Assembly (NCBI RefSeq): GCF_000383235.1 | Contig: NZ_KB910934.1 | Span: 1 to 64,000, forward strand | Length of the DNA stretch: 64,000 nt | Direction of reading: 5' to 3' | Source of the DNA: Bacillus sp. 123MFChir2 | GTDB lineage: Bacteria; Bacillota; Bacilli; Bacillales; Bacillaceae_G | Part shown: positions 46,526-62,029 of the stretch, piece by piece | Layout of the letters: every line of letters begins with the position of its first letter | How positions within the stretch are numbered: the first letter of the stretch is position 1 | Program-made: the position numbers and the translations under genes | The notes under the pieces: model-generated | What the model was told of the DNA's origin: nothing | The model's input: only the letters and a program-made list of their open reading frames with translations | Database searches by the model: none

Positions 46526-47665
46526 CTATATTACTTTTTCAAATGAAATATGAAATTCTGTCCACTCTTCTGTTGACTTACATGTGAGTGACCCTTTATG
46601 CTTCTCCACAATTTGTTTACAAACAAACAAACCGATACCAGTTCCTAATTTCTTTGTAGTTACAAATGGTTCAAATATTGTTTCTATATTTTCTGCTGGA
46701 ATCATCGGCCCATTATTTTTAATAAAAATATGTATTAATTCTTCGTCTTCACATACATCAATAACAATTCTCTTACTTTCTGCCATTCCTTCAAGAGCGT
46801 CAATAGAGTTCATTAAAATATTTAAAAACACTTGTCTAACTTCACTTCGATACCCCGTAAATGGTATTGGATGCGGCAAATTTTTCTCAATAGAAACATT
46901 TGCATTTACTAAACTCGGATATAGGAAGTGAATAATATCATGAAATAAATCATTCAGCCCAAATCTTTCTGCTTCATTCCATATTTCTTTTTTTGACACA
47001 AGTAAGAATTGAGAAATTCTAAAATTTAATTGATCAAGTTCATGTGAAATAATATCTAAATACGGGAGATGTGGTTGATCAGATTTTAACAATTTTACAA
47101 ATCCCATTATAGATGTTAATGGATTACGAAATTCATGAACGAAACTTGCTGACATTTGCCCTAATATTGTCAATCTCTCTTTATGTGTTTCGTTAATGAA
47201 TTTTTGCTTTTCTTCCAAATTTTTCGATATAATTTCTGAGTATTTCAAAACTGTATAATAAATTAAACGATCAAAACAAATATGTATCTTTCCCATGATT
47301 GGTTTCAGTTCACGAGCACTCACATCTAATTCACACATTGCTTCAAATAATTCATTCCGCCCTACATTCGCATTATAGACAAAATCGCCAATATTTGCGT
47401 CTGCCCCGGCACGCTCAATAGCAATTTTTTCGCCTAATGGTCTAATGAGATCAATATCATCTTCACTCATAATAAGTTTAATCATTAATGATAACAATTT
47501 TTCTCCGTTCTCAAAAATTTCTTGTTTAAAAGGATCATTTTCAGAAATAATAATTTTGTTTTTCCAGTTCTCTACAAATTGCTGATTATTCTTTTCTAAG
47601 TACGTACAAAACATTTTACTAATATCTTTTTCGATCGGAAAAACCCCCATTCCCTCCATCTCCAT
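46526..47665 (-). CDS. Orphan sensor histidine kinase, soluble
   Basis: A 379-residue protein with no membrane segment. The N-terminal 155 residues are helical and may be a sensor domain (KAIAIERAGADANIGDFVYNANVGRNELFEAM region). The H-box is SASFVHEFRNPLTSIMGF (phospho-His about 176), the N-box is FLNILMNSIDALEG, the G1 region reads NNGPMIP instead of D-x-G-x-G, and G2 is GTGIGLFVCKQIVE. The H-, N- and G-box style is that of the Bacillus sporulation phosphorelay kinases. No response regulator lies next to it. The start is uncertain: three in-frame ATGs fall in the GGAGATGGAGGGAATGGGGG stretch. Confidence 0.85.
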   Translation of the reverse strand: MEMEGMGVFPIEKDISKMFCTYLEKNNQQFVENWKNKIIISENDPFKQEIFENGEKLLSLMIKLIMSEDDIDLIRPLGEKIAIERAGADANIGDFVYNANVGRNELFEAMCELDVSARELKPIMGKIHICFDRLIYYTVLKYSEIISKNLEEKQKFINETHKERLTILGQMSASFVHEFRNPLTSIMGFVKLLKSDQPHLPYLDIISHELDQLNFRISQFLLVSKKEIWNEAERFGLNDLFHDIIHFLYPSLVNANVSIEKNLPHPIPFTGYRSEVRQVFLNILMNSIDALEGMAESKRIVIDVCEDEELIHIFIKNNGPMIPAENIETIFEPFVTTKKLGTGIGLFVCKQIVEKHKGSLTCKSTEEWTEFHISFEKVI

Positions 47666-47843
47666 ACGAAAAATACCCTATATATTTTGAATATTAACAC
47701 AAAAAACATTTTTCGTTAAGACACTATTGTCACATTTTGTTATTTCATGTTGATAAAATTTTTCAATTTAGTATGTGAAATTATTTTTTTTTGCATCCTA
47801 TTCATTTTTTTCATACAATAGAAACAGGAAAGGTGTGAAAAAA

Positions 47844-48236
47844 ATGGCAAATAAAAATGTGGAAGATTACCTTCAAGAAGGCATTTATGGACAAAAACAA
47901 AATAAACCCGAAGAGCGTAACATGTTTTTAAGCACATTGCGTGAACGTGTGGAAATAGCATTAACGATTGGGCAAGTCATGCAAACAAACGTATATCCAG
48001 AAATCAAAAACACGATGAGTTCTTCACAACAATTAACATTGTATGTGAACGGTACCATAACTTATTCACATTTATCTAAATACATTAAATTAGCAAATGA
48101 AAAACAAGTACCTTTTACAATTGTGCAAAATAAAGATACAAATACACCAATTGGACTTGTTCTTGCACATAATACAGCGGTAGAAAAAGAACATATTTAT
48201 GTAGAAGATGAAATTTACAAGCAAGAGATGAACTGA
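47844..48236 (+). CDS. yueI: YueI-family protein (DUF1694)
   Basis: A 130-residue protein: NVEDYLQEGIYGQKQNKPEERNMFLSTLRERVEIALTIGQVM is the YueI/DUF1694 signature, a family with an L7Ae-like or small Rossmann fold and unknown role. AAAGGTG lies seven bases before the ATG at 47844; the longer frame from 47775 is mostly Phe-rich leader and unlikely to be translated. Single gene with its own terminator. Confidence 0.85.
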   Translation: MANKNVEDYLQEGIYGQKQNKPEERNMFLSTLRERVEIALTIGQVMQTNVYPEIKNTMSSSQQLTLYVNGTITYSHLSKYIKLANEKQVPFTIVQNKDTNTPIGLVLAHNTAVEKEHIYVEDEIYKQEMN

Positions 48237-48237
48237 C

Positions 48238-48271
48238 AAAATACGCCCGACCTCTAAACGGGCGTATTTTT
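48238..48271 (+). terminator. Terminator after yueI
   Basis: AAAATACGCCCG (48238-48249) pairs with CGGGCGTATTTT (48259-48270) over a nine-base loop. Confidence 0.9.
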
Positions 48272-48289
48272 GTGAATTCTTTACGATAA

Positions 48290-48365
48290 AATGGACCTTC
48301 CATCAATGGATTCCCTCTCCGAATCTTGAGGTAGGGACTTTCTGCCCACGAAGAGCAGTTTAAAC
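48290..48365 (-). repeat. Family B (bcr1-like) partial copy 3, inverted
   Basis: Read on the minus strand it gives GGGCAGAAAGTCCCTACCTCAAGATT and then CCATTGATGGAAGG, which lines up with GGGCAGTAAGCCCCCACCTCAAAATT and CTGATGGAAG of the full element at 32868. It is worn and shortened. Confidence 0.6.
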
Positions 48366-48391
48366 TAAAAAACTCACCGTAAAGGTAAAGG

Positions 48392-49765
48392 TTATGAACT
48401 GACTTGTTCTTGAAATGAAACCGGTTGTTCCACTACTTCTACAGGCTGGATTGCAGGTTGCTTTGTCACTTCAATTTGTTTAATATAATGTCCATCTAAT
48501 TCAACAATACGAAACTTATAATTTTCTATATCAATGCTATCACCTTGTTCAATTTCAAGATGTTCTGTTAAAATCCAACCTCCAATTGTATCAACGTCTT
48601 CATCGTCAATTGAAAGTCCTAATAATGCATTTACTTCACTAACAAGTACTTTTCCTTCTAAAATTGTTTTTGTTTCACTAATGCGCTGAATTTCTGACTT
48701 TTCATCCGTATCAAATTCATCTTGAATGTCGCCAACAATTTCTTCTAATATATCTTCAACTGTTACAAGTCCAGACGTTCCGCCGTACTCATCCACTAAA
48801 ATTGCCATATGTGTGCGTTCCCTTTGCATTTTTACAAATAAATCATGAATAGCGACGGATTCAATAATTTGAATAATCGGACGGACATACTGTGCAACGG
48901 TTTCTTTATTTGTACCATCATGTTTCACAAAATCTGTGAAAATATCTTTAAAGTTTACAAAACCAATAACATGATCTTTATCACCGTCAATGACAGGATA
49001 TCTCGTATATTTCTCATTTGACATCATTTTCATTGCTTCAATAACAGATTGCTCTTTCTCTAAAATTACCATTTCTGTACGCGGAACTATTATTTCTTTC
49101 GCAATTCGATCGTCAAATTCAAAAATTTTATTAACATATTTATATTCTGATTGATTGATTTCACCATTTTTATAACTTTCTGATACAAGCATACGTAACT
49201 CTTCTTCTGAATGTGCTACTTCATGTTTTTGCATTGGTTTTAAGCCAAACATTCTCGTAACAATGCGCGCTGAACCATTCAATGCCCAGATAAAAGGATA
49301 CGCAAGTCGATAGAAGAAGATAAGCGGTCTTGCAACTGATAAGCTAATCCATTCTGCCTTCTGAATCGCCAATGTTTTCGGAGCTAGTTCGCCGACGACA
49401 ACGTGAAGAAAGGTAATGAACATAAAAGCTAGAAAAACAGATAAAATGGATGTCACCGAGGGAGGCACTTCCAATTTTGTGAAAATCGGATCTAGCATAC
49501 GCTTCACTGTCGGTTCTCCTAACCATCCAAGGCCGAGCGCTGTCACTGTAATTCCTAACTGACATGCTGATAAATACTCGTCTAAGTTTGTAATGACTGT
49601 TTTCGCAGCAGTTGCACGTTTGTTTCCTTCTGCAATTAAATAATCGATGCGTGAGCTCCTAACCTTGACAATTGCAAATTCAGACGCAACGAAAAAAGCA
49701 GTTAAGGCAATTAAAACAATCACCATACTTATACCAAATATGTCCAAATACGTTTCCTTACCCAC
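48392..49765 (-). CDS. CNNM/HlyC-CorC-type transporter with CBS domains
   Basis: A 457-residue protein. A DUF21 membrane domain (about 8-190, ALTAFFVASEFAIVKVRSSRIDYLIAEGN) is followed by two CBS domains (about 215-340; IIVPRTEMVILEKEQSVIEAMKMM) and a CorC/HlyC-type C-terminal domain (EVNALLGLSIDDEDVDTIGGWILTEHLE, about 365-430). Family members take part in magnesium or other cation efflux. The start is unsure: GTG at 49765 has its strong AGGAGG 20 bases upstream, while TTG at 49747 has AAGGA seven bases upstream. A hairpin (TTCCTTAC with GTAAGGAA, 49745-49780 region) spans the choice and may control initiation. Confidence 0.87.
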   Translation of the reverse strand: MGKETYLDIFGISMVIVLIALTAFFVASEFAIVKVRSSRIDYLIAEGNKRATAAKTVITNLDEYLSACQLGITVTALGLGWLGEPTVKRMLDPIFTKLEVPPSVTSILSVFLAFMFITFLHVVVGELAPKTLAIQKAEWISLSVARPLIFFYRLAYPFIWALNGSARIVTRMFGLKPMQKHEVAHSEEELRMLVSESYKNGEINQSEYKYVNKIFEFDDRIAKEIIVPRTEMVILEKEQSVIEAMKMMSNEKYTRYPVIDGDKDHVIGFVNFKDIFTDFVKHDGTNKETVAQYVRPIIQIIESVAIHDLFVKMQRERTHMAILVDEYGGTSGLVTVEDILEEIVGDIQDEFDTDEKSEIQRISETKTILEGKVLVSEVNALLGLSIDDEDVDTIGGWILTEHLEIEQGDSIDIENYKFRIVELDGHYIKQIEVTKQPAIQPVEVVEQPVSFQEQVSS

Positions 49766-50105
49766 TTTGTAAGTAAGGAAGCCACCTCCTAATTATTATA
49801 TTCTAAAAAAAAGATTCTCTAACAATCTTACAAATTTCTACACTAGTAATTCCCTTTTATACATTATATGCATACATAAAAAAGATATTTACGTTTATGA
49901 TAACGAAACTTATACTCTCCGTCAAATAAGAGAAACAACTGGAATTAGACAACTTTTTTCCATTTTCGCGGTGTTTTCTTCCTAAAAAAATATTTTTGTC
50001 AAAAAGCGCTTTCTTTGCCGATTTCTCACTTCTTTTGTCAGCCATGCAGGGAACAAACGAGTTATCACGAAACCTTCTAACTAATGAGACATAGGAGGGG
50101 TTATT

Positions 50106-50597
50106 GTGGAGTATAAAACGCCGATGATTGCCAAAACGTTAGGTATTAGTCCAAAAGCTGTTATCCGTCTTGCACAGCAAATCGGATTAGAGTTAAAAAA
50201 AAATAAATTTGGCCACTATGTTTTTTATGAAAAGGATTTACAGCAAATGCTTGATTTTCAGCGCTCTGCACCAAGTCATAAACATGAACCAGCTTCCTAT
50301 CATGCTGCTGAAGCAGCACCGTCAAATGAAATACAACAATTTATAAAAGAATTAAAACACATTTCCTTACGTTTAGATCGGCTAGAAGAAAAGTTACAAG
50401 ACAAAGCAGATGATGTTGTAAGTTATCAGTTGTTACAACACCGTAATGAAATGGAAGAAATGCACGCAAAAATTAACCAATTAGAAACAGCACTTAACCG
50501 AAAAGAATCAATCTATATTACACCAGAAGTGGCCGCAGCAAAACAAGAAGAAAAACCAAAGCGCCGTAAAATGATTTTAAGCATTTTTGGATTTTAA
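50106..50597 (+). CDS. racA: Chromosome-anchoring protein RacA
   Basis: A 163-residue protein. A MerR-like helix-turn-helix (about 1-50, EYKTPMIAKTLGISPKAVIRLAQQIGLELKKNKFGHYVFYEKDLQQML) is followed by a coiled coil (about 75-140, LRLDRLEEKLQDKADDVVSYQLLQHRNEMEEM) and a basic tail KPKRRKMILSIFGF that targets the membrane or DivIVA. RacA ties the chromosome origin region to the cell pole during sporulation. It is somewhat shorter than the common 180-residue form, mostly in the linker. It starts at a GTG (50106) with AGGAGGGG seven bases upstream. Confidence 0.92.
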   Translation: MEYKTPMIAKTLGISPKAVIRLAQQIGLELKKNKFGHYVFYEKDLQQMLDFQRSAPSHKHEPASYHAAEAAPSNEIQQFIKELKHISLRLDRLEEKLQDKADDVVSYQLLQHRNEMEEMHAKINQLETALNRKESIYITPEVAAAKQEEKPKRRKMILSIFGF

Positions 50598-50608
50598 TAT
50601 ATGTAATG

Positions 50609-50641
50609 AAAAAGGTGATGTTCATCGAACATCACCTTTTT
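50609..50641. terminator. Bidirectional terminator between racA and hcp
   Basis: AAAAAGGTGATGTTC (50609-50623) pairs exactly with GAACATCACCTTTTT (50627-50641) over ATC. It ends both converging genes. Confidence 0.93.
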
Positions 50642-50643
50642 CA

Positions 50644-51933
50644 TTATGATAACATCGCTTTCATATCTTCTTCTGCTGTTGTAATGAGTTGTAAACGAAA
50701 TGCGTCTTGTAACACTTGTAGTACAGATGGTGATATAAACTCTGGTGCTTTGGGACCGATACGAATATCTTGAATACCAAGACTAAATAATCCAAGTAAA
50801 ATTGCTACAGCCTTTTGCTCAAACCAAGACAATACAATGCTGACTGGTAACTCATTCACTTCACATTGAAATGCTTCCGCTAAAGCGGCTGCAATTTTCA
50901 CTGTTGAAATCGAATTATTACATTGACCAAGATCAATATAACGCGGTATATTCGTTCCTGGCACAACGCCATAATCTACGTCATTAAAGCGAAATTTCCC
51001 GCAAGACGTCGTTAGAATGACTGTTTCTGGTGGTAAGGATGTAGCTAATTCCCGATAATATTCTCCGCCTTTTCCAGGTGCATCACAACCAGCAATGACG
51101 AAGAAACGTTGGATTTTACCACCTTTCACCGCATCAATAATTTCTGGTGCAAGCGATAATACGGTTTCATGGTGAAATCCCGTTGTTAACTGTTCTTCTG
51201 ATTCCATTTGGACATCTGGAAGTTCCAACGCCGTTTCAATAAGCGATGTAAAATCATTATTTTCAATTTTTCGTACTCCTTCTAACCCTGCAATATCATA
51301 GGAAAAGAAGCGATTTGCATATGTTCCTTTAATTGGCATCACACAATTTGTCGTTGCTAATATAGCTCCTGAAAATTTTTCGAATAAACGGCGCTGATCA
51401 TACCAAGCCTTTCCGATATTCCCCTTTAAATGCACATATTTTTTCAACTGCGGATAACCATGTGCTGGCAGCATTTCAGAATGGGTATAAATATTAATAC
51501 CTGTTCCTTCTGTTTGCTTTAATAACTCTTCTAGTGCAAATAAATTATGTCCTGTAACTACAATTGCTTTTCCATAAGCACGGTTTTGTGTAATTTGTAC
51601 TGGTTCTGGCACTCCGAAATGATCAGTATGTGCCTTATCAAGTAATTCCATCACGCGAATCGCGGCTTTTCCAACTTTCATTGCCATATCTAAATGTTCT
51701 TGTTCATTAAAGTTTGAATTTGTTAACGTCATATATAACGCTTCATGCGTTACTTCATCTACAAATGGGTCTGTGTATCCAAGCTGTGCTGCATGAGTAC
51801 GATATGCAGCAATTCCTTTTAAAGCAAAGACAATAATATCTTGTAAGCTTGCAATGGTTTCATCTTTTCCACAAACTCCGATAATTTCACATCCTCCGGT
51901 AGGCGTTTGTTCACATTGATGACAAAACATCAT
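50644..51933 (-). CDS. hcp: Hydroxylamine reductase (hybrid cluster protein)
   Basis: A 429-residue prismane protein, the shorter class. The N-terminal cluster cysteines are in MFCHQCEQTPTGGCEIIGVCGKD. The hybrid-cluster ligands lie in VTGHNLFALEELL (His), the Glu of NIYTHSEMLPAHGYP, TNCVMPI (Cys), IAGCDAPGKGGEYY (Cys), TSCGKFRFN (Cys), and DLGQCNNSIS (Cys). It removes nitric oxide or hydroxylamine stress products under low oxygen. GAGGGG is six bases before the ATG at 51933; the next codon is also ATG. The frame to 52008 crosses the FNR-type operator. Confidence 0.95.
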   Translation of the reverse strand: MMFCHQCEQTPTGGCEIIGVCGKDETIASLQDIIVFALKGIAAYRTHAAQLGYTDPFVDEVTHEALYMTLTNSNFNEQEHLDMAMKVGKAAIRVMELLDKAHTDHFGVPEPVQITQNRAYGKAIVVTGHNLFALEELLKQTEGTGINIYTHSEMLPAHGYPQLKKYVHLKGNIGKAWYDQRRLFEKFSGAILATTNCVMPIKGTYANRFFSYDIAGLEGVRKIENNDFTSLIETALELPDVQMESEEQLTTGFHHETVLSLAPEIIDAVKGGKIQRFFVIAGCDAPGKGGEYYRELATSLPPETVILTTSCGKFRFNDVDYGVVPGTNIPRYIDLGQCNNSISTVKIAAALAEAFQCEVNELPVSIVLSWFEQKAVAILLGLFSLGIQDIRIGPKAPEFISPSVLQVLQDAFRLQLITTAEEDMKAMLS

Positions 51934-51960
51934 TCCCATCCCCTCTCTAGCAATCTTTAT

Positions 51961-52009
51961 ATTGTAAGCGTAATACAAACCGCTATTGAAAGATGTGATG
52001 ATAATCACA
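51961..52009 (-). promoter_or_regulatory. hcp promoter with FNR/CRP-type operator
   Basis: TGTGATGATAATCACA (51994-52009) is a perfect TGTGA-N6-TCACA dyad, the CRP/FNR-family consensus. A -10 box TACAAT (51961-51966 on the minus strand) lies so that the dyad centre falls about 45-47 bp before the start, near a class II activator position. Confidence 0.8.
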
Positions 52010-52036
52010 TGGAATGATGCAATTCTGTGACAACAT

Positions 52037-52633
52037 TCATCTTGTTAACATAATATTTTTACTGCCTTCTTTAATCAATGTTTGTGCATGTGCATTTCCT
52101 TGAATCACATCACGAAATTCTTTCAAAGAATACATATGCGTCAATCCTTTCATAACATGAATACAAACTGGTACACCTTGTAGTTCATCATTAACAGTAA
52201 ATACATCATCGATAGGCTCTATCGGGAATCCTAATGAACGTAAGTACATATACATACGCTTTGTTACAACTGCAATATACCACTCTGCTTTTACCTCTAA
52301 TGCATGTATAAATAAAATCGTCGCAAGTTGCTTAAATTGTCCACGACCGCGAGATGTTTTCGCAATACTTAATTTTCCAATTTCGTATACATTTTTTAAT
52401 CCTTTTATATATTCATTTTCAGAAAATGGATAAAAAAACTCGGAATTTGATTGTTCAGGTGTTTTATATTGTATGCATTCAACAGTTCCAATATAATGAT
52501 TATCTTCTATCAATAAAAATCTTGATGGTGTTAAATTTCTTTCTACAAACATTATGTTTCGTTCTTCACAAAAATCTCCCCATAATTGCTCGAACCAAAA
52601 ATGTTCTTCCTTTGTTTGAACACGTTGGAACAT
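52037..52633 (-). CDS. Acyltransferase-like (GNAT-fold) protein, unknown
   Basis: A 198-residue protein. FLLIEDNHYIGTVECIQYK, YEIGKLSIAKTSRGRGQFKQLATILFIHALEVKAEWYIAVVTKRMYMYLRSLGFPIEPI follows the order of a GNAT fold: core strand, a pyrophosphate loop written SRGRGQFKQLA, and a helix-strand pair with the late tyrosine. It resembles the N-acyl amino acid synthase and autoinducer-synthase branch of GNAT. AAAGGCGGGGAAG precedes the ATG. It lies upstream of hcp but the FNR-type promoter separates them. The substrate is unknown. Confidence 0.65.
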   Translation of the reverse strand: MFQRVQTKEEHFWFEQLWGDFCEERNIMFVERNLTPSRFLLIEDNHYIGTVECIQYKTPEQSNSEFFYPFSENEYIKGLKNVYEIGKLSIAKTSRGRGQFKQLATILFIHALEVKAEWYIAVVTKRMYMYLRSLGFPIEPIDDVFTVNDELQGVPVCIHVMKGLTHMYSLKEFRDVIQGNAHAQTLIKEGSKNIMLTR

Positions 52634-52755
52634 ACTTCCCCGCCTTTCCTATCACCCTTTGCTTATTTGTTAGCGCTTTCACCATCTATCATATAAAAAG
52701 GAAACTTGCTATGCAAGAAAAACTATTTTTCCAATATCTCAAACTTTAAAAAATA

Positions 52756-52813
52756 CGAAACCTCCATCAGTGCGGATTTTCTTAATTCCTCACTGATGGA
52801 AGTTTCACTTTAT
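52756..52813 (+). repeat. Family B repeat, hairpin copy 4, abutting the McrC-like gene
   Basis: GAAACCTCCATCAGTG pairs with CACTGATGGAAGTTTC. Its right end, ggaagtttcac-TTTAT, is the same as that of the full element (33006-33019), including TTTAT (52809-52813). The stop codon and last two codons of the McrC-like gene fall inside it. Confidence 0.75.
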
Positions 52814-54652
52814 CCCCGCTAACCAGTGCTGCAAGATATTTATTAGTTCTTTTTTTCCCGCTACCCTCTCTTTGCCTTTTTTTGTTTTATACGGATACAA
52901 TTGTAAAAATACACCGCAACCTGTTTCAATTTTTTTCGCATGCATATTACTACCTGGATATACACATATAACTTCATAAATTGCACGGCGGTGAAATAAG
53001 CGTTTTCCATTTTTCTCTTCTACATATTTAATTGACCAATATTTATACATCTGCTCAGTTGCTTTCGTATTTCCAACTGGTTGAAAAATGTTATACATTG
53101 GACTATATTTTACTTCAACTATAATAGATGATTGATATTCATAGGCAGTTTCCCCTTGTTTATAACAATCAATACGAATATCTGGTTTTTTTGTATCCTC
53201 TCCATTATAAAATTGACTCTGTTTACTGAGCGCAATAAGCGGATGCGTTTCAATTAAATCATTAAATACTACATGCAACTGTAAATCTTCGTCCTCCAAC
53301 ACAATTGTTGTACCATCTTGTAAACCATCTAAATAAAAATACGATTGAATTTGCTCTGCAATTGACATGTAATCGTTAAAACCAAGTTCTTGTAGAATTG
53401 CCACAACAGTAAAGTAGGCATAATACTCATAAATTAAAAATGTCGGCTTATAAACAAATAGAAATGATGGTTCTAATTCATTACGATGTGGCGAGAATTC
53501 AAGCTGATATAATAATTGATGGTATACAGGAGGCATCGAATGTGTTGTAAGTGTAATTTCTTCCCGAATCTCTCTCCAAAACGGCGTATATAAAAGGCTT
53601 GAAAAATATGTTAGTGTACTTTGCAAAATTGTATAAAGCACCTTATATTCTTGAATTTTCATAGCCATTTTGCGTAAGTCTGTGTCTTTTAACAAATTCA
53701 TGTTACGATATTTTTGTTTGTCTCGTTCCGTCACAGAACCATTTCGCTCAATTGTTTGTAAAATTGTATGCACTGCTTTTTTCTCGTCTCTTCGCGTTTG
53801 CTGTGCCCTCTCTAATTTCTGAATCGTTTCGCGCAAAAATAAATCAATTTCTAATAGCTGATTGTAAAACAACTTCGTCTTATATTTTACATAGCCATTC
53901 ACTTTATCATGCTTTTTCTCTACAAAACGGCGATTATACCATTTTTCATACGGTTTTTTCTCGCGTATAATAGTGCTCTTTCTTCCCTGCTTCCTCTCCC
54001 GCATTTCCCATATATACTCATCTTCAAAATTTACTTTTTGCTGCACTTCATAATATAACTGCTTTATTTTTTTCATTTTTTGCGGCAACATCCGGAGCAT
54101 ACGCATATATGAATAATCTTCAATATCTGCAAATGTAACAAATGTCTTTTTATAATATCCTCGATCTAAAATGATCCCACTTAGCACAGACTTTACATAT
54201 TGCTGAATTAACTCTAATTGATCATCAAAAAAATTTTTCGGAACGATTTGAAATGCGCCGTAAAACAACTCTTCTCCAATCTGCACTTCAAAATGATATA
54301 CACCGCAGCGCCACGGATATAAATAATCCGTTTTTCCATGCTCATACAGTAAAATAGTACGTTGTTTTTCATGCAGTTCATATTTCCATTCCATATGTTG
54401 CTTTTGTCCTTCGTATACTTTATTCCAAATAAACGTAATCTTTATTGGATATTGTGATTGTATATGTAGCCGAAGCGGTTTTAACTCTTGTACTTTGTAC
54501 ACACACGACGAAATCGTAATGGGTGAAGCGCAAAGCTTATTTAATACTATATGTTCTCCCTTCTCTTCTGCCCCTACTATAACTTTCAATACAAACGGAA
54601 GCTTCTCTCCTGTTTCTATAATTTCTGTCTCATACGTGCTTTCATTTAACAT
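52805..54652 (-). CDS. McrC-like protein: DUF2357-type N-domain plus PD-(D/E)XK nuclease
   Basis: A 615-residue protein. The N-terminal third is beta-rich and matches the general style of DUF2357 (McrC N-domain; LRLHIQSQYPIKITFIWNKVYEG, then YPWRCGVYHFEVQIGEELFYGAFQI). The middle is helical and basic (about 150-370). Near the end PDIRIDCYK (490-498), an IIVEVKYSP strand (510-518) and a following helix give the D-x(n)-E-x-K arrangement of PD-(D/E)XK nucleases, with D495, E513 and K515 as likely catalytic residues. It overlaps the AAA gene by 11 bases. Together they look like a type IV, McrBC-class restriction pair. Its stop codon is supplied by a family B repeat. Confidence 0.8.
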   Translation of the reverse strand: MLNESTYETEIIETGEKLPFVLKVIVGAEEKGEHIVLNKLCASPITISSCVYKVQELKPLRLHIQSQYPIKITFIWNKVYEGQKQHMEWKYELHEKQRTILLYEHGKTDYLYPWRCGVYHFEVQIGEELFYGAFQIVPKNFFDDQLELIQQYVKSVLSGIILDRGYYKKTFVTFADIEDYSYMRMLRMLPQKMKKIKQLYYEVQQKVNFEDEYIWEMRERKQGRKSTIIREKKPYEKWYNRRFVEKKHDKVNGYVKYKTKLFYNQLLEIDLFLRETIQKLERAQQTRRDEKKAVHTILQTIERNGSVTERDKQKYRNMNLLKDTDLRKMAMKIQEYKVLYTILQSTLTYFSSLLYTPFWREIREEITLTTHSMPPVYHQLLYQLEFSPHRNELEPSFLFVYKPTFLIYEYYAYFTVVAILQELGFNDYMSIAEQIQSYFYLDGLQDGTTIVLEDEDLQLHVVFNDLIETHPLIALSKQSQFYNGEDTKKPDIRIDCYKQGETAYEYQSSIIVEVKYSPMYNIFQPVGNTKATEQMYKYWSIKYVEEKNGKRLFHRRAIYEVICVYPGSNMHAKKIETGCGVFLQLYPYKTKKGKERVAGKKELINILQHWLAGIK

Positions 54653-56450
54653 AACCGTATAACTCCAACTCTCGCCGTTTTTGCTTCATATACAACAGCG
54701 AGTGTTCAAAAGTTGATACACGATTTGCAAGTGATGATTGCAATAATTGTACAAGAGACACTTCTTTTTTCCCCTCTTCCCGAAGCAATGTCCCTATTGT
54801 AGCTTCTGTACCACGTAACTTCGTTAAAATACGTTGTTTTATTTGTAAATCAAATGCTTCTTCACGGCTTATTAATAAAATTCCCCCTTCATCACATGGT
54901 ATATTTTGTAAATAATATGCAATTGCTGAGGCAACGCGAAAAGAGATCCCTTTGGACGCATCGTGAAGAAATAACAGCTGATGCATTTTATCTAATAACT
55001 CCACTTCTTCTTCTGTAAACACATTAAGCATTTCCTTGTGTTGAACCCAGTTCATTCGAAATTCTAGAGCTGGAATAGAAAATGCAAATGGACGTGGTAG
55101 CGCTTTTCTCTCAATCATACTCATCTCACAAAATGGAATTTTTTGAAGGAATACAACATTCACACGATCCAATAAACGGTCGGATAACTCTTTTGTTGTT
55201 TCATCAAAATTAACTGTACCCACAAAAATGATATTATCACCAATTTCTATTTGTGATGGCACATCTTGCTCTTTTCCATTTTCCGCTGCATACAAAGATA
55301 AAATACGATTTTTCCGTTCTAACTGTAGGAGTGATAAAAAAGGAGTAAACCAATGTTCAATATATGACAAATTCATTTCATCAAATGCAATTATATATAA
55401 TTGATTTGGATTTTCCGCTGCTTCTAAAAGAGTTCGAACAAGTTTTGTTTCACTTTCCATATATGTTCCATTTGAATGGAGATAACCTAGCACATCATGG
55501 GGTTCTTGATAGGATGGTGAGACTGGAACCCAAATGAACTCTTTCCCAAATGCTAATCCGAGTGCTTCCGCATAAGCTTGAACAAACTGTGATTTCCCAA
55601 TTCCAGGCATACCACCTACTATTGTTAATAAATTTGTCTTCACACAAATATGAAAATTGTAAATATCACTTTCATCAATATATAATTCTTTTTCTGCGAG
55701 AATTTGCTTCACATATTGTATAAAAGAATATTCACGTTCATTCCATACCTTTTCTTTTTCTTGTTTGCTTGTATCGATAATTTCAATTATTTTTCCGTTC
55801 TCTTTTATTTGTTTTTCTAATCGTTCATATACTTCTGTTCGAACAAAAAATAAGCTATTCTCAACATTCATATCGACATACTGCACCCAATCATCAATAT
55901 CAAGGTAACGAACATCCCTTCCCTGCTCTCGATATGCAATGGCACTAATAGAATGCTTTAAAGTTACATTTCCATATATCCTTCCTTCATACCATAACAA
56001 CTCTGGTACACCAAGATCATGCGGGAATTTTGGTACTAGAAATGAAACATATCCTTTCCCAAGTTTTCTTTCAAATACTTCTCTTTCCTTTAAGACTGAT
56101 AGTTTAGGCGAAGGGATCATTTTATAGGAATTTGCTATGTCTTGTTCCTCACAACGTATTAGTTCTGCATATAAATTGCCACTTGTATAAGAAAGTCGAA
56201 ATAACAACAGCTGTTTTTCTCGGTTTCCTTCTTTTATACTCGCAAAAAATTTTTCATTTTGTTTATTTTTATATAAACCCTCAAAGATATAACAACCATC
56301 TCCAAAAGCTGCCTCGATTATGTTAGGGATTGGTGAAAGACAAACGACAAAAAATGATTCTTTCTTCTGCTTTTCTGCGAATTTCCCGACAAAACGCATA
56401 TGCTGCAATCTCTTTATAAAGCTTGGATGAAGAGGTTTCTCTAATTTCAT
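54642..56450 (-). CDS. McrB-like AAA+ ATPase
   Basis: About 602 residues. The first 215 or so form an N-terminal region I do not recognise, which in this class binds the target nucleic acid. The AAA+ core has Walker A GGMPGIGKS (about 279-287), Walker B IIAFDEMN (about 353-360), sensor segment VGTVNFDETTKELSDRLLDR (about 410-429) in the style N-x-D-E-T-T and LLDR common to McrB relatives. The MNTADRS form of E. coli McrB is not present. AAGGTGA precedes the ATG at 56450; a GTG nine bases upstream is less likely. The gene for the nuclease follows with an 11-base overlap. Confidence 0.82.
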   Translation of the reverse strand: MKLEKPLHPSFIKRLQHMRFVGKFAEKQKKESFFVVCLSPIPNIIEAAFGDGCYIFEGLYKNKQNEKFFASIKEGNREKQLLLFRLSYTSGNLYAELIRCEEQDIANSYKMIPSPKLSVLKEREVFERKLGKGYVSFLVPKFPHDLGVPELLWYEGRIYGNVTLKHSISAIAYREQGRDVRYLDIDDWVQYVDMNVENSLFFVRTEVYERLEKQIKENGKIIEIIDTSKQEKEKVWNEREYSFIQYVKQILAEKELYIDESDIYNFHICVKTNLLTIVGGMPGIGKSQFVQAYAEALGLAFGKEFIWVPVSPSYQEPHDVLGYLHSNGTYMESETKLVRTLLEAAENPNQLYIIAFDEMNLSYIEHWFTPFLSLLQLERKNRILSLYAAENGKEQDVPSQIEIGDNIIFVGTVNFDETTKELSDRLLDRVNVVFLQKIPFCEMSMIERKALPRPFAFSIPALEFRMNWVQHKEMLNVFTEEEVELLDKMHQLLFLHDASKGISFRVASAIAYYLQNIPCDEGGILLISREEAFDLQIKQRILTKLRGTEATIGTLLREEGKKEVSLVQLLQSSLANRVSTFEHSLLYMKQKRRELELYGYVK

Positions 56451-56511
56451 CTTGCTCACCTTCTTTTTCCGATGCTTTTATCATTGTATGAGTAATAAAA
56501 GCAAACTAGAA

Positions 56512-56540
56512 ACAAAAAACCTGACACTTATTGTCAGGTT
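56512..56540 (-). terminator. Terminator upstream of the McrB-like gene
   Basis: On the minus strand AACCTGACA pairs with TGTCAGGTT over a five-base loop and is followed by TTTTTTG. It overlaps the stop of the 86-residue gene, separating it from the McrBC-like pair. Confidence 0.88.
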
Positions 56541-56794
56541 GAATGAAATCCTTCTTTTTCTTGAGAAATTGCGTTGTGAGCAATCTTCATTTTCGTTAGG
56601 ACATAACGTAATGTATCTTCTACATTCTTATCTTCTTGTATGTGCATATTAGCTAAAACTTCTACAGAACATGCTAAATTTTCTACCGCTCCACGTAGTT
56701 CGGGGTGTCGATTAAAGAACGATTCTTGCACTAATAATTTTCGGACGTCTATTGCTAACTCTACAATTCTCACTAATTTTTCCTTTTCTTCCAT
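56534..56794 (-). CDS. Small helical protein, unknown
   Basis: An 86-residue, all-helical soluble protein: KEKLVRIVELAIDVRKLLVQESFFNRHPELRGAVENLACSVEVLANMHIQEDKNVEDTLRYVLTKMKIAHNAISQEKEG. No motif or family recognised. GGAGGGG lies before the ATG at 56794. A strong terminator at its stop means the McrBC-like pair does not depend on it, though leaky reading through is possible. Confidence 0.7.
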   Translation of the reverse strand: MEEKEKLVRIVELAIDVRKLLVQESFFNRHPELRGAVENLACSVEVLANMHIQEDKNVEDTLRYVLTKMKIAHNAISQEKEGFHST

Positions 56795-56898
56795 AACAAT
56801 CCCCTCCTACATACCTTTTACATTAAAATATTCTGCTCATTACTAGAAATACCTGCTAACTCTTTAAAAATTAAAACACAAAATACTTTATTCCGCAT

Positions 56899-56938
56899 AA
56901 AAAAAGGATCTATGCTCACTTCGCATAAATCCTTTTTT
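56899..56938 (-). terminator. Terminator after the antiporter gene
   Basis: AAAAAAGGATCTATGC pairs with GCATAAATCCTTTTTT (one mismatch) 15 bases after the stop at 56953. Confidence 0.85.
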
Positions 56939-56952
56939 GTATATTGATATAT

Positions 56953-58368
56953 TCACATCCCGATTTTTCCAGAAGCTAACATATAAATAGAAGTAACTGC
57001 TGCTAGTAAGATAATAATCATTACATATTGTTCAACGCGAGTAAAGCAGCGATTTCCTTGCTCTTTTCTTGCTGCAACATAAACGATTAGACCGATGCCA
57101 TATACTAAAGAAACAAGTAATAAGTTTTTCAATCCAGCTGCATACACAAGCCAAACACCATATGCAGCTGCCATTAGAGCAAGTATCCCATCTTTCCATC
57201 TGTTTCCTTCGTATGCTTCTGTAATCACTAATTTCAACTGATATAGTGCTGAAAATACATACGGAAGTAAAATTGATGTTGATGCAATAAAATACATGAT
57301 CTGATATGTTGATTCTGAAAATAACACAATAATAAATAATGTTTGGGCAACACAATTTGAAATCCATAACGCTGCATGCGGCGTATGATTTTTGTTCGTT
57401 TTTGTAAATACCTTCGGAAACACAGCGTCTTTTCCAGCAACGTGGGAAATTTCCGAAACAAGTAAAAACCAACCAATTAATGTGCCGATAAGAGACGCAA
57501 TTAATCCTATGTTAATAACCAATACTCCCCATGAACCGACAACATGTTCTAATACATGTCCCATTGACGGCGTTTCAAGTGCTGCTAATTCCTCTCGCGG
57601 CATCACTCCTAGCGATAAAACTGAAATTAGAATATAAACGCCCATTACTAACAGTAAACCAAATACAGTTGCTTTTCCGACATCACGGCTACGTTTTGCT
57701 CGCCCTGATAAAACGACAGCTCCTTCTACGCCAATAAATACCCAAAGCGTAACGAGCATCGTATTTTTAACTTGTCCAAGTACAGAAGATACTGAAACCT
57801 GGCCTTTTCCCCAAAAGTCATGTGTAAATGTATCCCAGCGAAATGCCGTTACCATAATGACAATAAATAATACGATCGGGACAAGTTTGCCAATTGTCGC
57901 AATAAAATTCATAATCGAAGCTTCGCGAATGCCAAGTAAAATAAGAAAATGAAGCGTCCACAATAACACTGATGCACCGACGATAGCCGGAACAGTATTA
58001 CCACCTTTGAAAATTGGAAAAAAGTATGCTAACGAGTTAAATAACAACATAATTGTTGCAACGTTACCTAATATTCCAGCAATCCAATATCCCCATGCGC
58101 TGTTAAATCCAATGTATTCTCCAAAACCAGCGCGTGCATAACTATAAATACCACCTTCAAGTTCTGGCTTCCGCTGTGCCAATGATTGATATACAAGAGC
58201 AAGTGGTATCATTCCTAATGCTGTAATACACCAACCAATTAAGGTAGCACCGCTGTTTGCCCCTGCTGCTAAATCGTGCGGTAAACTAAATACACCGCCT
58301 CCAACCATTGTTCCTACTACAAGTGCGATTAATGGAAAAAATCCTAATTTCTTTTCTATTGGTATCAC
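56953..58368 (-). CDS. APC-family amino acid antiporter (ArcD-like)
   Basis: A 471-residue membrane protein with about twelve to thirteen segments. The start KKLGFFPLIALVVGTMVGGGVFSLPHDLAAGAN holds the GxGxF substrate loop of helix I of basic amino acid/polyamine antiporters, and ELEGGIYSYARAGFGEYIGFNSAWGYWIAG is typical of the arginine-ornithine (ArcD) and lysine-cadaverine branch. It probably exchanges a basic amino acid for its product. No arginine deiminase or decarboxylase gene lies next to it, so the true substrate is open. Confidence 0.88.
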   Translation of the reverse strand: MIPIEKKLGFFPLIALVVGTMVGGGVFSLPHDLAAGANSGATLIGWCITALGMIPLALVYQSLAQRKPELEGGIYSYARAGFGEYIGFNSAWGYWIAGILGNVATIMLLFNSLAYFFPIFKGGNTVPAIVGASVLLWTLHFLILLGIREASIMNFIATIGKLVPIVLFIVIMVTAFRWDTFTHDFWGKGQVSVSSVLGQVKNTMLVTLWVFIGVEGAVVLSGRAKRSRDVGKATVFGLLLVMGVYILISVLSLGVMPREELAALETPSMGHVLEHVVGSWGVLVINIGLIASLIGTLIGWFLLVSEISHVAGKDAVFPKVFTKTNKNHTPHAALWISNCVAQTLFIIVLFSESTYQIMYFIASTSILLPYVFSALYQLKLVITEAYEGNRWKDGILALMAAAYGVWLVYAAGLKNLLLVSLVYGIGLIVYVAARKEQGNRCFTRVEQYVMIIILLAAVTSIYMLASGKIGM

Positions 58369-58560
58369 CCCGTCTGCAATTTCTTGATGTGCTCATTCCG
58401 TTCTACCAGGCATTCATATTATGAGTTATTTATATATAAAATACGTACCTCGAAAATAACGAACTGTTTCACTTTATATTCTTTCAGAAAAACATTACTT
58501 ATTCTAAAAGAAAACGAGCAAAAATGGAATACTTTTTCGAAAAAAAGTATAAGTATGCAT

Positions 58561-58598
58561 AAAAAAAGGGCGTTTTTTTATATAAACGCCCTTTTTTT
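58561..58598. terminator. Terminator after the OpuC-type permease gene
   Basis: AAAAAAAGGGCGTTT (58561-58575) pairs with AAACGCCCTTTTTTT (58584-58598). It can work in both directions and lies 20 bases after the stop at 58618. Confidence 0.92.
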
Positions 58599-58617
58599 AT
58601 GTATTTGTAAATGAATT

Positions 58618-60129
58618 TTATTTTAATAACCCTTCTTTTTGTAAAAACTCTCTTGCTACTTTCTCTGCTTTTTTCCCTTCTACGTTCACTTCATAATTCA
58701 TTTTACGCATTTCTTCGTCAGTAATTTTCCCTGCAAGTTTATTTAATGTTTTTTCAATTTCTGGGTATCTCTTTAACGTTTCTCCCCGTAATAATGGTGC
58801 TCCTTGATATGGTGGAAACAACCCTTTATCATCTTCTAGTACTTGCAGACCGTATTGCTGTAATTCACTGTCTGTTGAATAGGCATCAATGAGATTCACA
58901 TCGCCAGATTGAATGGCGCTATAACGCAGCTTCGGTTCCATCGTTTTTAAATTAGGAAACTGTATGTCATATAGTGTTTGTATTCCTTTATATCCATCTT
59001 CACGATCTCCAAATTCAAGTGTAAATCCCGCTTTCATATTAGAAGAAACATTTTTTAAATCAGAAATTGTTTTGATGTTATACTGCTGCGCTATTTGTTT
59101 TGGTACTGCTAATGCGTACGTGTTGTTATACTGCATTGGTTTTAACAGCTTCATATTAAACTTCTGCTCCATCCCATTTTGGGCCTGCTCATATACTTCT
59201 TGACGATCTGTACTTTTTGGTTCTTCCTTTACGAAAGTCGATAAAGCCGTTCCTGAAAATTCTGGATAAATATCAATTTCTTTAGATTTTAACGCTTCAA
59301 ATACAAAAGATGTTTTTCCGAATCCTGGTTTTACCTCTACTTTTAAATCGGTATCCTGTTCAATTAATTGTTTATACATCTGAATTAAAATTTCCGGCTC
59401 TGAGCCAAGTTTACCGGCAATTATAATATCTTTCTTTTGAGTACTCCAAAGAAACGGTACGATGATGATTCCAACTACAACGGCAATTGTAACAATCGTT
59501 CGCTTCGGTGAACGTCTTACATGCAGGGTCATGCGCAGCACACCATCAAAAAATAATGCTAATAATGCAGCGGGAATAGCACCTAACAAAATAAGAGCAT
59601 GGTCATTCCTATCAATTCCAAGCAAAATAAGCTTTCCTAACCCTCCTGCTCCAATTAAAGCAGCCAATGTCGCTGTACCAACAATTAGTACCATTGCCGT
59701 CCGAATTCCTGCCATAATAATAGGCCAAGCAAGTGGTATTTCTACCTTCCATAAACGTCTCCAATTGTTCATCCCCATCGCTTTTGCTGCTTCAATAAGC
59801 GATGGATCTAGTTCACGAATCCCTGTGTATGTATTTCTTAAAATAGGAAGCAGTGCATAAATCACAAGCGCAATTATAGCTGGGACCTTTCCAATACCAA
59901 CTAACGGGATTAATAACCCAAGAAGCGCCAAAGAAGGAATCGTTTGCATCACAGCAGAAGTACCAATTACCCATTCCGCAATACGCTCTTTTCTTGTTAA
60001 CAAAATTCCAAGCGGCACTGCGATAAGAATTGCAAAAAATAAAGCAATCAACGAAATTTGCAAATGTTCCAAAAGGGCACTGAACAGTTCTTGTTTACGC
60101 TCTTGCATCGTTTGTAAAAAGGTTGTCAC
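58618..60129 (-). CDS. Osmoprotectant ABC transporter, permease fused to substrate-binding protein
   Basis: A 503-residue fusion. Residues about 1-215 are an OpuCB/CD-type permease with the EAA loop (LIEAAKAMGMNNWRRLWKVEIPLAWP) and about six membrane segments. After a seventh segment the rest (about 240-503) is an OpuAC-type glycine betaine/choline/carnitine-binding domain (IIAGKLGSEPEILIQMYKQLIEQ, KSKEIDIYPEFSGTAL, YKGIQTLYDIQFPNL). Such fusions occur in BilE/OpuC-like systems of Firmicutes. It follows the ATPase gene by three bases. The system brings in compatible solutes under osmotic stress. Confidence 0.92.
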   Translation of the reverse strand: MTTFLQTMQERKQELFSALLEHLQISLIALFFAILIAVPLGILLTRKERIAEWVIGTSAVMQTIPSLALLGLLIPLVGIGKVPAIIALVIYALLPILRNTYTGIRELDPSLIEAAKAMGMNNWRRLWKVEIPLAWPIIMAGIRTAMVLIVGTATLAALIGAGGLGKLILLGIDRNDHALILLGAIPAALLALFFDGVLRMTLHVRRSPKRTIVTIAVVVGIIIVPFLWSTQKKDIIIAGKLGSEPEILIQMYKQLIEQDTDLKVEVKPGFGKTSFVFEALKSKEIDIYPEFSGTALSTFVKEEPKSTDRQEVYEQAQNGMEQKFNMKLLKPMQYNNTYALAVPKQIAQQYNIKTISDLKNVSSNMKAGFTLEFGDREDGYKGIQTLYDIQFPNLKTMEPKLRYSAIQSGDVNLIDAYSTDSELQQYGLQVLEDDKGLFPPYQGAPLLRGETLKRYPEIEKTLNKLAGKITDEEMRKMNYEVNVEGKKAEKVAREFLQKEGLLK

Positions 60130-60132
60130 TTT

Positions 60133-61086
60133 CTATGCCCTCACTTTCATTTGCTCTACTATGTATTGAACGATATGCTCACTTGTTAATGTACCGATAT
60201 ATGTACCGTTTTCTTCGATTGGTATTTCTTTTTCGTGTTCTAAACGAAGTAAAGCATCATGCAGGGTCACTTCAGTCGAAAGTGGATGAGCATCGCCTTG
60301 TTTTCCTTCTTGCGCTAATATTGATACTATATCTTCTACTTTTCTTTGATCATACCAAGATAATCGTGGCCTCCCAATAAACTCTTCTACAAATGTATTT
60401 GCAGGATTTTGTAAAATGACTTCTGGCGTATCAAGTTGGACAACTTTTCCATCTTTCATTATACAAATACGATCACCAAGCGCTAGCGCTTCTTGCATAT
60501 CATGAGTTACGAAAACAATTGTTTTTTGAATCTTTTTTTGCAAGTCTACTAAATCACGCTGCAGCTGCTCACGGCTTAAAGGATCAAGCGCACTAAACGG
60601 TTCATCCATTAAAACAATTTTGGGATTGGCAGCAAGTGCCCGCACAACACCAACGCGCTGCTTTTGACCGCCAGATAATTCATCTGGCATACGTTCCCTA
60701 TATATATGTGGATCTAAACCAACCATTTCTAATAACTCATCAACACGCTTTTCGATTTTCACTTTACTCCATTTGCGCATTTCTGGTACAACCGCAATGT
60801 TTTCTGCAATTGTCATATGCGGAAAAAGCGCAATCTGTTGCAAAACATACCCAATGTCCCATCGTAATTCATGAATGTTATAATCCTGGATGTTCTTCCC
60901 ATCAATAAAAATTGAACCTTCTGTTGTTTCAATTAATCTATTAATCATTTTCATCGTCGTTGTCTTTCCACATCCACTCGGGCCAATCAAAACAAAAAAT
61001 TCTCCTTTACGAATCTCTAGCTGCAAGGAATCTACGGCCTTTGTTTTATCATCAAACGTTTTTGAAACGTGTTCAAATCGAATCAC
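60133..61086 (-). CDS. Osmoprotectant ABC transporter, ATP-binding protein (OpuCA-like)
   Basis: A 317-residue ATPase. Walker A GPSGCGKTT, Q-loop YVLQQIALFPHMT, signature LSGGQKQRV, Walker B KIVLMDEPFSALD and the switch histidine FVTHDMQEAL are all intact. A short C-terminal part (about 245-317) holds a partial CBS-like region (HPLSTEVTLHDALLRLEHEKEIPIEENGTYIGTL) that may sense ionic strength as in OpuA. A GTG at 61092 lies only two to three bases from AAGGAG; the GTG at 61086, giving VIRFEHVSKTF, has the right spacing and is preferred. It is first in the operon. Confidence 0.93.
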   Translation of the reverse strand: MIRFEHVSKTFDDKTKAVDSLQLEIRKGEFFVLIGPSGCGKTTTMKMINRLIETTEGSIFIDGKNIQDYNIHELRWDIGYVLQQIALFPHMTIAENIAVVPEMRKWSKVKIEKRVDELLEMVGLDPHIYRERMPDELSGGQKQRVGVVRALAANPKIVLMDEPFSALDPLSREQLQRDLVDLQKKIQKTIVFVTHDMQEALALGDRICIMKDGKVVQLDTPEVILQNPANTFVEEFIGRPRLSWYDQRKVEDIVSILAQEGKQGDAHPLSTEVTLHDALLRLEHEKEIPIEENGTYIGTLTSEHIVQYIVEQMKVRA

Positions 61087-61164
61087 ATACACAACTCCTT
61101 TTTCATTCTTTCCTCTATTCTCATGGAAATTCGAGCTATTTTCAAATAATTTGTCTTCTCAAAA

Positions 61165-61190
61165 TAAAAAGAGCTCTATTTTGAGCTCTA
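61165..61190 (-). terminator. Terminator after the DUF218 gene
   Basis: On the minus strand AGAGCTC pairs with GAGCTCT over a six-base loop and is followed by TTTTATTTT. It overlaps the stop codon at 61188. Confidence 0.85.
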
Positions 61191-61745
61191 ATAATCTTTT
61201 AAAATTGTCTTTATGATTGCCGCATATTCACGTATATACGCCTTTTTCCGCGAACGCTTTGGCGTCGGTGCAGCAAGTGCTTCCATCTTCATACCTAAGC
61301 GATTTGCGATGATTTTCGTCCGGTATAAATGATAGGTGTTACTTACTACAACTGCATGTTTCACATCATATAGCTCCTTAGAAAACTTTAGATTTTCATA
61401 TGTACTTGTAGAACGATCTTCAAGTAAAATTCTTTCTTTTCCAATACCATTTCCTATTAAATATCGACTCATACTAAGAGCCTCTGAAATATCTTCATCG
61501 TCTCCTTGTCCGCCAGATACAACTACTTTTGCCTCTGGATGTGAGCGTAAATAACTTACTGCTACATCTAATCGATTTTGTAGTGACAAGGAAGGTCTAT
61601 CTCCAAATAATTTTGCTCCTAGAACTAAAACATAAGGTGCTGTATGACTTACTTTCTCATTGGCAATTTTTCTCATGCGGTATGTTGTATACACAATATA
61701 CAATGGTGGCAATAACATCAATAATAATAAAAAGCATTTCTTCAT
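61188..61745 (-). CDS. DUF218 (YdcF/SanA-like) membrane-anchored protein
   Basis: A 185-residue protein. One N-terminal membrane segment (KKCFLLLLMLLPPLYIVYTTY) is followed by a DUF218 domain: YVLVLGAKLFGDRPSLSLQNRLDVAVSYLRSHPEAKVVVSGGQGDDEDISEALSMSRYLIGNGIGKERILLEDRSTSTYENLKFSK. SGGQG-x-E and EDRSTSTYEN are signature parts. SanA-like proteins are linked to envelope integrity and vancomycin resistance; the chemistry is not settled. It is a single gene. Confidence 0.88.
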   Translation of the reverse strand: MKKCFLLLLMLLPPLYIVYTTYRMRKIANEKVSHTAPYVLVLGAKLFGDRPSLSLQNRLDVAVSYLRSHPEAKVVVSGGQGDDEDISEALSMSRYLIGNGIGKERILLEDRSTSTYENLKFSKELYDVKHAVVVSNTYHLYRTKIIANRLGMKMEALAAPTPKRSRKKAYIREYAAIIKTILKDY

Positions 61746-61828
61746 CGCAGTTCTCTCCCTTTCTTTTCATTATATGAAAAAAAGGAATCATGCAGAAGTG
61801 CTTTCTCTACACATATTTCATTTCAAAA

Positions 61829-61857
61829 AAATAGTGAGGATACACTCCTCACTATTT
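61829..61857 (-). terminator. Terminator after the 37-residue basic peptide
   Basis: AAATAGTGAGGA pairs exactly with TCCTCACTATTT over TACAC; on the minus strand it is followed by TTTT. It starts three bases after the stop at 61860. Confidence 0.92.
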
Positions 61858-61859
61858 CC

Positions 61860-61973: not shown

Positions 61974-62029
61974 ATCATTTCACACCTTTTTTAATTGTTA
62001 CTTTTATAGGATGTGTATTAGATTCGTTA

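What the first reader, a model, noticed from the sequence alone, without database searches (positions are those of the whole stretch)
52805..56450. Divergent McrB/McrC-like two-gene system (AAA+ plus PD-(D/E)XK)
Two coupled genes (11-base overlap) encode an AAA+ ATPase with an unrecognised 215-residue N-domain and a 615-residue protein with a DUF2357-like front, a long basic helical middle and a C-terminal D495...E513-V-K515 nuclease site. The pair has the logic of type IV restriction (McrBC) but differs from E. coli McrBC: no MNTADRS motif, no recognisable cytosine-modification reader, and a much longer nuclease subunit. It sits between bcr-type repeats in otherwise ordinary genes. Whether the target is modified DNA, RNA or something else is open. 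This is the best candidate in the window for an undescribed defence system.
Basis: partly seen in the sequence, partly recalled or inferred. Interest (0 to 1): 0.72.

Follow-up and report, generated by a model that had tools for sequence, protein, structure and literature searches.

The report
Core two-gene McrBC-like NTPase-nuclease pair
The two genes are a real NTPase-plus-nuclease pair of an already described branch of McrBC-type systems, and in the related genomes searched they sit at a fixed place in the chromosome, more like a core gene than like a phage-defence system that comes and goes.

Summary
The two genes are real: 54642-56450(-), 602-aa AAA+ NTPase, and 52805-54652(-), 615 aa, overlapping by 11 bases. 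The NTPase is McrB-like (hhalign to E. coli McrB E 1.5e-7). The "missing MNTADRS" is replaced by GTVNFDE, the NxD motif of the CoCoNuT branch (Bell et al. 2024, PMC11090510). The partner keeps E409, PD-D491, E513xK515 and QxxxY; some relatives match DUF2357 and PDDEXK_7. Most more distant relatives carry a third, upstream gene (CnuA position); the window and its closest kin do not. This fits Bell's "Pseudo-Type I-B CoCoNuT" of "many Bacillus species", so it is not an undescribed system. New here: the CnuC gene is in 19 of 19 genomes of the nearest family, in one syntenic locus in 17 of 17 examined, and under purifying selection. No convincing CnuA was found in 18 of those 19 genomes, against the idea that CnuA is borrowed from a second system. 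Core-like inheritance speaks against ordinary patchy phage defence; a domesticated nucleic-acid surveillance or stress role is my best guess, untested.

The parts
54642..56450 (-). McrB-like AAA+ NTPase gene (CnuB-like), 602 aa
   Evidence: ORF; NxD motif; hhalign to E. coli McrB E 1.5e-7; PDB profile hits to McrB E 1.3e-4 to 3.1e-4
55755..56450 (-). N-terminal domain, residues 1-232, unidentified by sequence
   Evidence: no PDB profile match at E up to 10 with a 22-row alignment; G22, S39, P42, F84, P149, Y159 invariant there
55590..55613 (-). Walker A, residues 280-287
55203..55211 (-). NxD signature N414-F-D416 (followed by E417)
   Evidence: NxD in 39 of 39 aligned rows
52805..54652 (-). 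McrC-like nuclease gene (CnuC-like), 615 aa
   Evidence: ORF; of 22 members of A3, 10 match DUF2357 and 6 PDDEXK_7, the window's not among them
54173..54652 (-). N-terminal part of CnuC, residues 1-160 (where Bell et al. place an IG-like domain)
   Evidence: conserved YPWRCGxYxFEV-type stretch; no convincing PDB match; fold not tested
53474..54127 (-). basic middle, residues 176-393, probably helical
   Evidence: pI 9.6; weak coiled-coil profile matches
52883..53464 (-). PD-(D/E)XK-type nuclease region, residues 397-590: E409, D491, E513xK515, Q534xxxY538
54642..54652 (-). 11-base overlap of the two genes
   Evidence: overlap of 11-23 bases in 36 of 38 other loci
52757..52806 (-). hairpin after the second gene, terminator-like, part of a dispersed repeat
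   Evidence: 23-nt arms, 87% complementary; further copies of its end
56518..56540 (-). terminator-like hairpin between the 86-aa gene and the pair
   Evidence: number of such sites not above chance
52037..52633 (-). GNAT-type protein resembling N-acyl amino acid synthase FeeM; usual downstream neighbour of the pair
   Evidence: PF21926 E 8.5e-4, 19.6 bits against a cut-off of 27; 23-541 bases downstream of the pair in 15 of 17 loci

Best explanation
The pair is a Pseudo-Type I-B CoCoNuT: an NxD-type McrB-like NTPase (CnuB) and an McrC-like nuclease (CnuC) that most likely descend from three-gene Type I-B systems by one loss of the coiled-coil protein CnuA. Likely mechanism, inferred by analogy to McrBC: CnuB forms an NTPase ring, a helical stalk of CnuC enters it and stimulates hydrolysis, and ring activity licenses the C-terminal PD-(D/E)XK nuclease to cut a nucleic acid recognised by the CnuB N-domain. 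In this lineage the machine has become a fixed, vertically inherited core module, so its everyday job is more likely surveillance or turnover of nucleic acid under stress than occasional phage restriction. Shown: genes, motifs, conservation, absence of CnuA, synteny, purifying selection. Inferred: ring, coupling, substrate, stress role.
For: NxD in 39 of 39 rows. Nuclease residues conserved. McrB homology; DUF2357 and PDDEXK_7 in some relatives. The two-gene form is one branch of both trees: 97/96 for CnuB, 100/99 for CnuC. A CnuA profile finds nothing convincing in 18 of 19 family genomes. 19 of 19 genomes have the CnuC gene. A HisK_N kinase gene (1.7-9.6 kb away) and an HTH gene are at the same locus in 17 of 17 examined and a FeeM-like GNAT in 15; in the 21 three-gene loci none of these occurs except one kinase match. 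In an 11-locus group, over 36 of 55 pairs with all five genes in range, median dN/dS is 0.034 (CnuB) and 0.039 (CnuC) against 0.055-0.067 for three neighbours. HsdR control: 9 of 19, 3 of 19 over cut-off.
Against: No structure could be predicted. E. coli McrC gives no hhalign match and the window's CnuC matches neither DUF2357 nor PDDEXK_7 directly. In the one other close pair (L003/L043) dN/dS is 0.091 and 0.103, higher than the kinase (0.044) and within the range of three other neighbours (0.085-0.215), so the tighter constraint is not general. The CnuB of the 11-locus two-gene group (34-35% identical to the window in A4) is less like the window than four three-gene rows (38-41%), and sits on a long branch. 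A core pattern in the nearest family does not show the same for the window's own species, for which no genome is held. No mutant or expression data.
Confidence: 0.6

Rival explanations
1. Ordinary type IV antiphage restriction: the N-domain reads modified phage DNA and the nuclease cuts it; the pair merely happens to be kept in all these species.
For: McrB/McrC homology; the PADLOC candidate-defence model PDC-M26A matches CnuB in 22 of 22 rows; one three-gene relative lies next to an HsdR gene and others are on plasmids.
Against: Not patchy in the nearest family (19 of 19), one locus, purifying selection, no defence gene among the window neighbours scanned with Pfam (not all window genes were scanned); CnuC has no PADLOC match in 22 of 22 rows.
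Confidence: 0.25
2. RNA-targeting system as Bell et al. propose for CoCoNuTs in general: the pair cleaves host or phage RNA tied to translation. (A question of substrate; it can be true together with the best explanation.)
For: NxD branch membership; Bell et al. report cold-shock and YTH-like domains in Type I-B CnuB.
Against: The N-domain of this CnuB matched nothing convincing in the PDB by profile, so those domains are untested here; an intact PD-(D/E)XK site is, from general knowledge, more often a DNase.
Confidence: 0.3
3. A decaying remnant without function.
For: CnuA is lacking; two far relatives (G408, G431) have lost NTPase motifs.
Against: Active-site residues and frames are intact in the window and close relatives; dN/dS 0.03-0.10.
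Confidence: 0.03

Closest known systems
Pseudo-Type I-B CoCoNuT (Bell et al. 2024, eLife, PMC11090510)
   Same: NxD McrB-like NTPase plus McrC-like nuclease, no CnuA, in Bacillus relatives, beside a FeeM-like GNAT (their 'quorum-sensing hormone synthase' by my reading)
   Different: No mechanosensitive channel among the neighbours scanned (not all were). Bell et al. suggest CnuA may be used from a Type I-B system; in 18 of 19 genomes here none was found. Their figure supplement listing the islands was not seen, so I cannot say that this very locus is in their set.
Type I-B CoCoNuT (CnuA-CnuB-CnuC)
   Same: CnuB 27-41% and CnuC 14-29% identical to the window over the three-gene rows of A4 and A3; the overlap of the last two genes
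   Different: An extra upstream gene; found in few genomes outside the family (38 of 381 in the order draw have any CnuC match); some on plasmids
E. coli K-12 McrBC
   Same: AAA+ core of McrB; two overlapping or adjoining genes in the same order
   Different: NxxD instead of NxD; McrC of 348 aa, not matched by profile; no DUF3578 match in the window's CnuB
PADLOC candidate PDC-M26
   Same: CnuB matches PDC-M26A at 1.5e-34
   Different: CnuC matches no PADLOC model in 22 of 22 rows at E up to 0.01; what PDC-M26 stands for in print was not found (listing)

Membership tests
NxD-branch McrB-like NTPase | NxD in place of NxxD, usually followed by E or D | tested here: met
   N414-F-D416-E417; NxD in 39 of 39 rows, followed by E in 38 and D in 1
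McrBC family | McrB-like AAA+ core | tested here: met
   hhalign E 1.5e-7 to E. coli McrB; PDB McrB hits
McrBC family | McrC: DUF2357 plus PD-(D/E)xK | tested here: inconclusive
   10 of 22 and 6 of 22 relatives match, the window protein does not, E. coli McrC does not; catalytic-type residues conserved
Pseudo-Type I-B CoCoNuT | close relative of Type I-B by GTPase phylogeny | tested here: met
   two-gene clade beside three-gene systems; that these are Bell's Type I-B I judge from gene order, not from their accessions
Pseudo-Type I-B CoCoNuT | separate coiled-coil gene CnuA lost | tested here: met
   directly upstream of the window pair lies only an 86-aa gene; no convincing CnuA in 18 of 19 kin genomes; the window's own genome beyond 64 kb could not be searched
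Pseudo-Type I-B CoCoNuT | neighbourhood with quorum-sensing hormone synthase, mechanosensitive channel, transporters | tested here: inconclusive
   FeeM-like GNAT below cut-off and transporters present; no mechanosensitive channel among the proteins scanned
Type I CoCoNuT | cold-shock and/or YTH-like domain in CnuB; IG-like domain at the CnuC N-terminus | not testable with these tools
   profiles found no convincing PDB relative; structure prediction off
antiphage defence system | patchy distribution, association with defence islands | tested here: not met
   19 of 19 genomes, fixed synteny in 17 of 17, in the nearest family; not testable in the window's own species

The most novel reading that the evidence does not exclude
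A type IV restriction machine was domesticated once in an ancestor of this lineage: it dropped its coiled-coil partner CnuA, settled at one chromosomal locus near a FeeM-like acyl synthase and a HisK_N histidine kinase, and now serves the cell as a core nucleic-acid surveillance or stress module kept by purifying selection.
Probability: 0.45. Interest if true: 0.65.

Novelty: new member of a known kind. Interest (0 to 1): 0.42.

Why it matters
Bell et al. [quoted passage not shown] only Bell et al. was opened). A version that is core, single copy in 18 of 19 genomes, without CnuA and conserved offers a clean genetic handle: one deletion in a harmless relative asks what an NxD McrB/McrC machine does for its host. 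It also speaks against the suggestion that Pseudo-Type I-B uses CnuA of a second system, at least in this family.

Tried and rejected
No fold search was therefore made. N-domain identity by profile: no convincing match (one search gave six matches at E 0.71-2.2, taken as chance). CnuC front: three weak matches (E 0.11-0.58), taken as chance. E. coli McrC against the CnuC profile: no match. Viral contigs: 8 pattern stretches, none a relative. Phage records: none for CnuC, two partial matches of 24.8% and 31.3% identity for CnuB. 20 kb of the window (44000-64000) against plasmids to learn the organism: only two far, partial matches. Weak CnuA-profile matches in G001 and G004 (E 5.4e-4 and 9.3e-4, coiled part only) taken as coiled-coil chance; the strong matches in G140, G303, G030, G124 and G019 are rows of that same profile, so they show only that the search works.

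Rows dropped: L068 and L074 (three-gene loci with broken CnuB or CnuC frames) were left out of the alignments and of the count of 21; A3 and A4 hold 22 rows each, chosen from the 39 I had; the C tree leaves out L007, L010 and L073 and adds L088, L089 and L090; pairs outside dS 0.02-1.5 were dropped gene by gene (36, 37, 50, 43, 44 of 55 left), the same 36 of 55 pairs were used for all genes. Two of the 19 family genomes (G008, G013; contig ends) were not examined for synteny.
Full report
What is there. Window 54642-56450(-) encodes a 602-residue AAA+ protein and 52805-54652(-) a 615-residue protein; they overlap by 11 bases. The ATG at 56450 has a good ribosome-binding site in front of it, so I take it as the start rather than the GTG at 56459. 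A 23-nt hairpin closes the second gene, and a terminator-like hairpin separates the first from an 86-aa gene upstream (not above chance in number), so the pair looks like its own transcript.

Repeats. The end of the downstream hairpin, CTGATGGAAGTTTCACTTTAT, recurs exactly at 32999 and with 3 mismatches at 38069-38089(-), none expected by chance, so it is a dispersed repeat. A longer family lies at 272-469, 14099-14285, 38222-38294 and 46423-46457. I found no copy on the upstream side of the pair. Whether these are bcr elements was not testable here.

The NTPase. Pfam and NCBIfam give the window protein only sub-threshold matches; PADLOC gives the candidate PDC-M26A at 1.5e-34. A profile of 22 rows matches McrB in the PDB (E 1.3e-4 to 3.1e-4) and E. 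coli McrB by hhalign at 1.5e-7 across Walker A, Walker B and sensor. The signature is GTVNFDE. NxD is kept in 39 of 39 aligned rows, followed by E in 38 and D in one; two later rows, L089 and L090, lack it. Bell et al. 2024 (PMC11090510; outline, passages, sections 7 and 8 in full, part 1 of section 9) define a major McrB branch by this shortening of NxxD to NxD.

The nuclease. The window protein matches no Pfam family. Of the 22 members of A3, 10 match DUF2357, 6 PDDEXK_7 and 1 the McrBC family PF10117. In that alignment E409, P490, D491 and K515 are invariant and Q534 and Y538 nearly so; position 513 is E or D in the 29 rows printed, and one row outside A3 (L056) has R for K515. So the likely catalytic acid is D491 rather than D495. 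The middle is basic. E. coli McrC itself was not matched, so the McrC link rests on the Pfam chain, gene order and motifs.

Three genes or two. Relatives outside the nearest family mostly carry a gene of 358-498 residues directly upstream of the NTPase gene, overlapping it in 20 of 21 counted loci and 1 base away in the last; L068, L074 and L088 have it too. One of the 21 (L056) is a second system in a family genome, G019. The reading of that gene as CnuA is by position and size in all, and by BLAST or profile similarity in many but not all. Two loci, in G408 and G431, lack it. The window and the 17 loci examined in the nearest family have no such gene directly upstream. In the trees the two-gene form is one branch: CnuB 97/96 (39 rows), CnuC 100/99 (39 rows). 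With three-gene systems on other sides of it, one loss of CnuA is the simplest reading, though trees without an outgroup cannot prove direction. Against it: CnuB of the 11-locus group is less like the window (34-35%) than four three-gene rows (38-41%) and sits on a long branch. A CnuA profile found a convincing CnuA in 1 of the 19 family genomes, G019. Bell et al. [quoted passage not shown] In 18 of these 19 genomes I found none to use.

Core behaviour. The CnuC gene is in 19 of 19 genomes of the nearest family, single in 18. In a draw of 397 genomes of the order, 54 have any match: 16 are family genomes, so 38 of the other 381. In a draw of 398 of the class, 20 have a match. As a control, HsdR is found in 9 of 19 family genomes, in 3 over the curated cut-off. 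At the locus, an HTH gene (MerR-like is my label) and a HisK_N kinase occur in 17 of 17, a DUF1694 gene in 16, a FeeM-like GNAT in 15 and a CorC/CNNM gene in 14; the kinase is 1.7-9.6 kb away. In the 21 three-gene loci one kinase match occurs and nothing else of these. The GNAT has strong matches (E below 1e-30) in 14 of 397 order genomes, all family genomes with the pair; the next best is 4.2e-17. Two of the 16 family genomes in that draw (G003, G004) have no GNAT match, and in G008 it has stops inside.

Selection. Among 11 close loci, over the same 36 of 55 pairs, median dN/dS is 0.034 for CnuB and 0.039 for CnuC, against 0.055 (GNAT), 0.063 (CorC) and 0.067 (kinase); CnuB is below the kinase in 35 of 36 pairs, CnuC below GNAT in only 23 of 36 (first count). 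In the pair L003/L043 the values are 0.091 and 0.103 against 0.044 (kinase), 0.085, 0.134 and 0.215. So there is clear purifying selection, tighter than the neighbours in one group but not in the other. The pairs are not independent.

Organism. No genome is held for the window. The only named close relatives are three Ectobacillus species at 53-58% identity for CnuC. That the 11-locus group is Priestia-like, and that the window may come from the Bacillus cereus group, are my guesses and come from no call.

How it probably works. By analogy to McrBC: an NTPase ring with the CnuC stalk in it, hydrolysis licensing the nuclease. The substrate is unknown; Bell et al. predict RNA for CoCoNuTs in general. 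My best reading is a domesticated core module; plain restriction stays possible. No experimental paper on such a pair appeared in the listings; of these papers I opened only Bell et al.

A side branch. In G408 and G431, which make up a family of two held genomes, the pair lacks CnuA, CnuC is shorter (531 and 514 aa) but keeps its nuclease motifs, and CnuB has lost NxD in both and the Walker A lysine in G431. If real, the nuclease is there kept without a working NTPase.

Noticed in passing
L089:7355-10664 and L090:9027-12381: Two-gene relatives whose CnuB lost the NxD motif (and in L090 the Walker A lysine) while CnuC keeps PD...EVK...QxxxY; both lie near an ABC transporter ATPase gene similar to the window's 60133-61092.
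   Followed up: partly
window 52793-52813, 32999-33019, 38069-38089; and 272-469, 14099-14285, 38222-38294, 46423-46457: Two families of dispersed intergenic repeats, one of them hairpin-forming and touching the end of the nuclease gene.
   Followed up: partly
L059:13021-15930: CnuA-like gene appears split into 383- and 145-aa pieces with an opposite-strand open frame between them.
   Followed up: no
L057:2864-9253: Three-gene system just downstream of an HsdR-type restriction gene.
   Followed up: no
L002:15343-16683: Homologue of the window's HTH protein (50106-50597) carries about a dozen copies of an SSTIEEPHSVKTQG-type repeat in its middle.
   Followed up: no
window 52037-52633: FeeM-like GNAT: lineage-specific companion of the pair, strong matches in 14 of 397 order genomes only.
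   Followed up: partly
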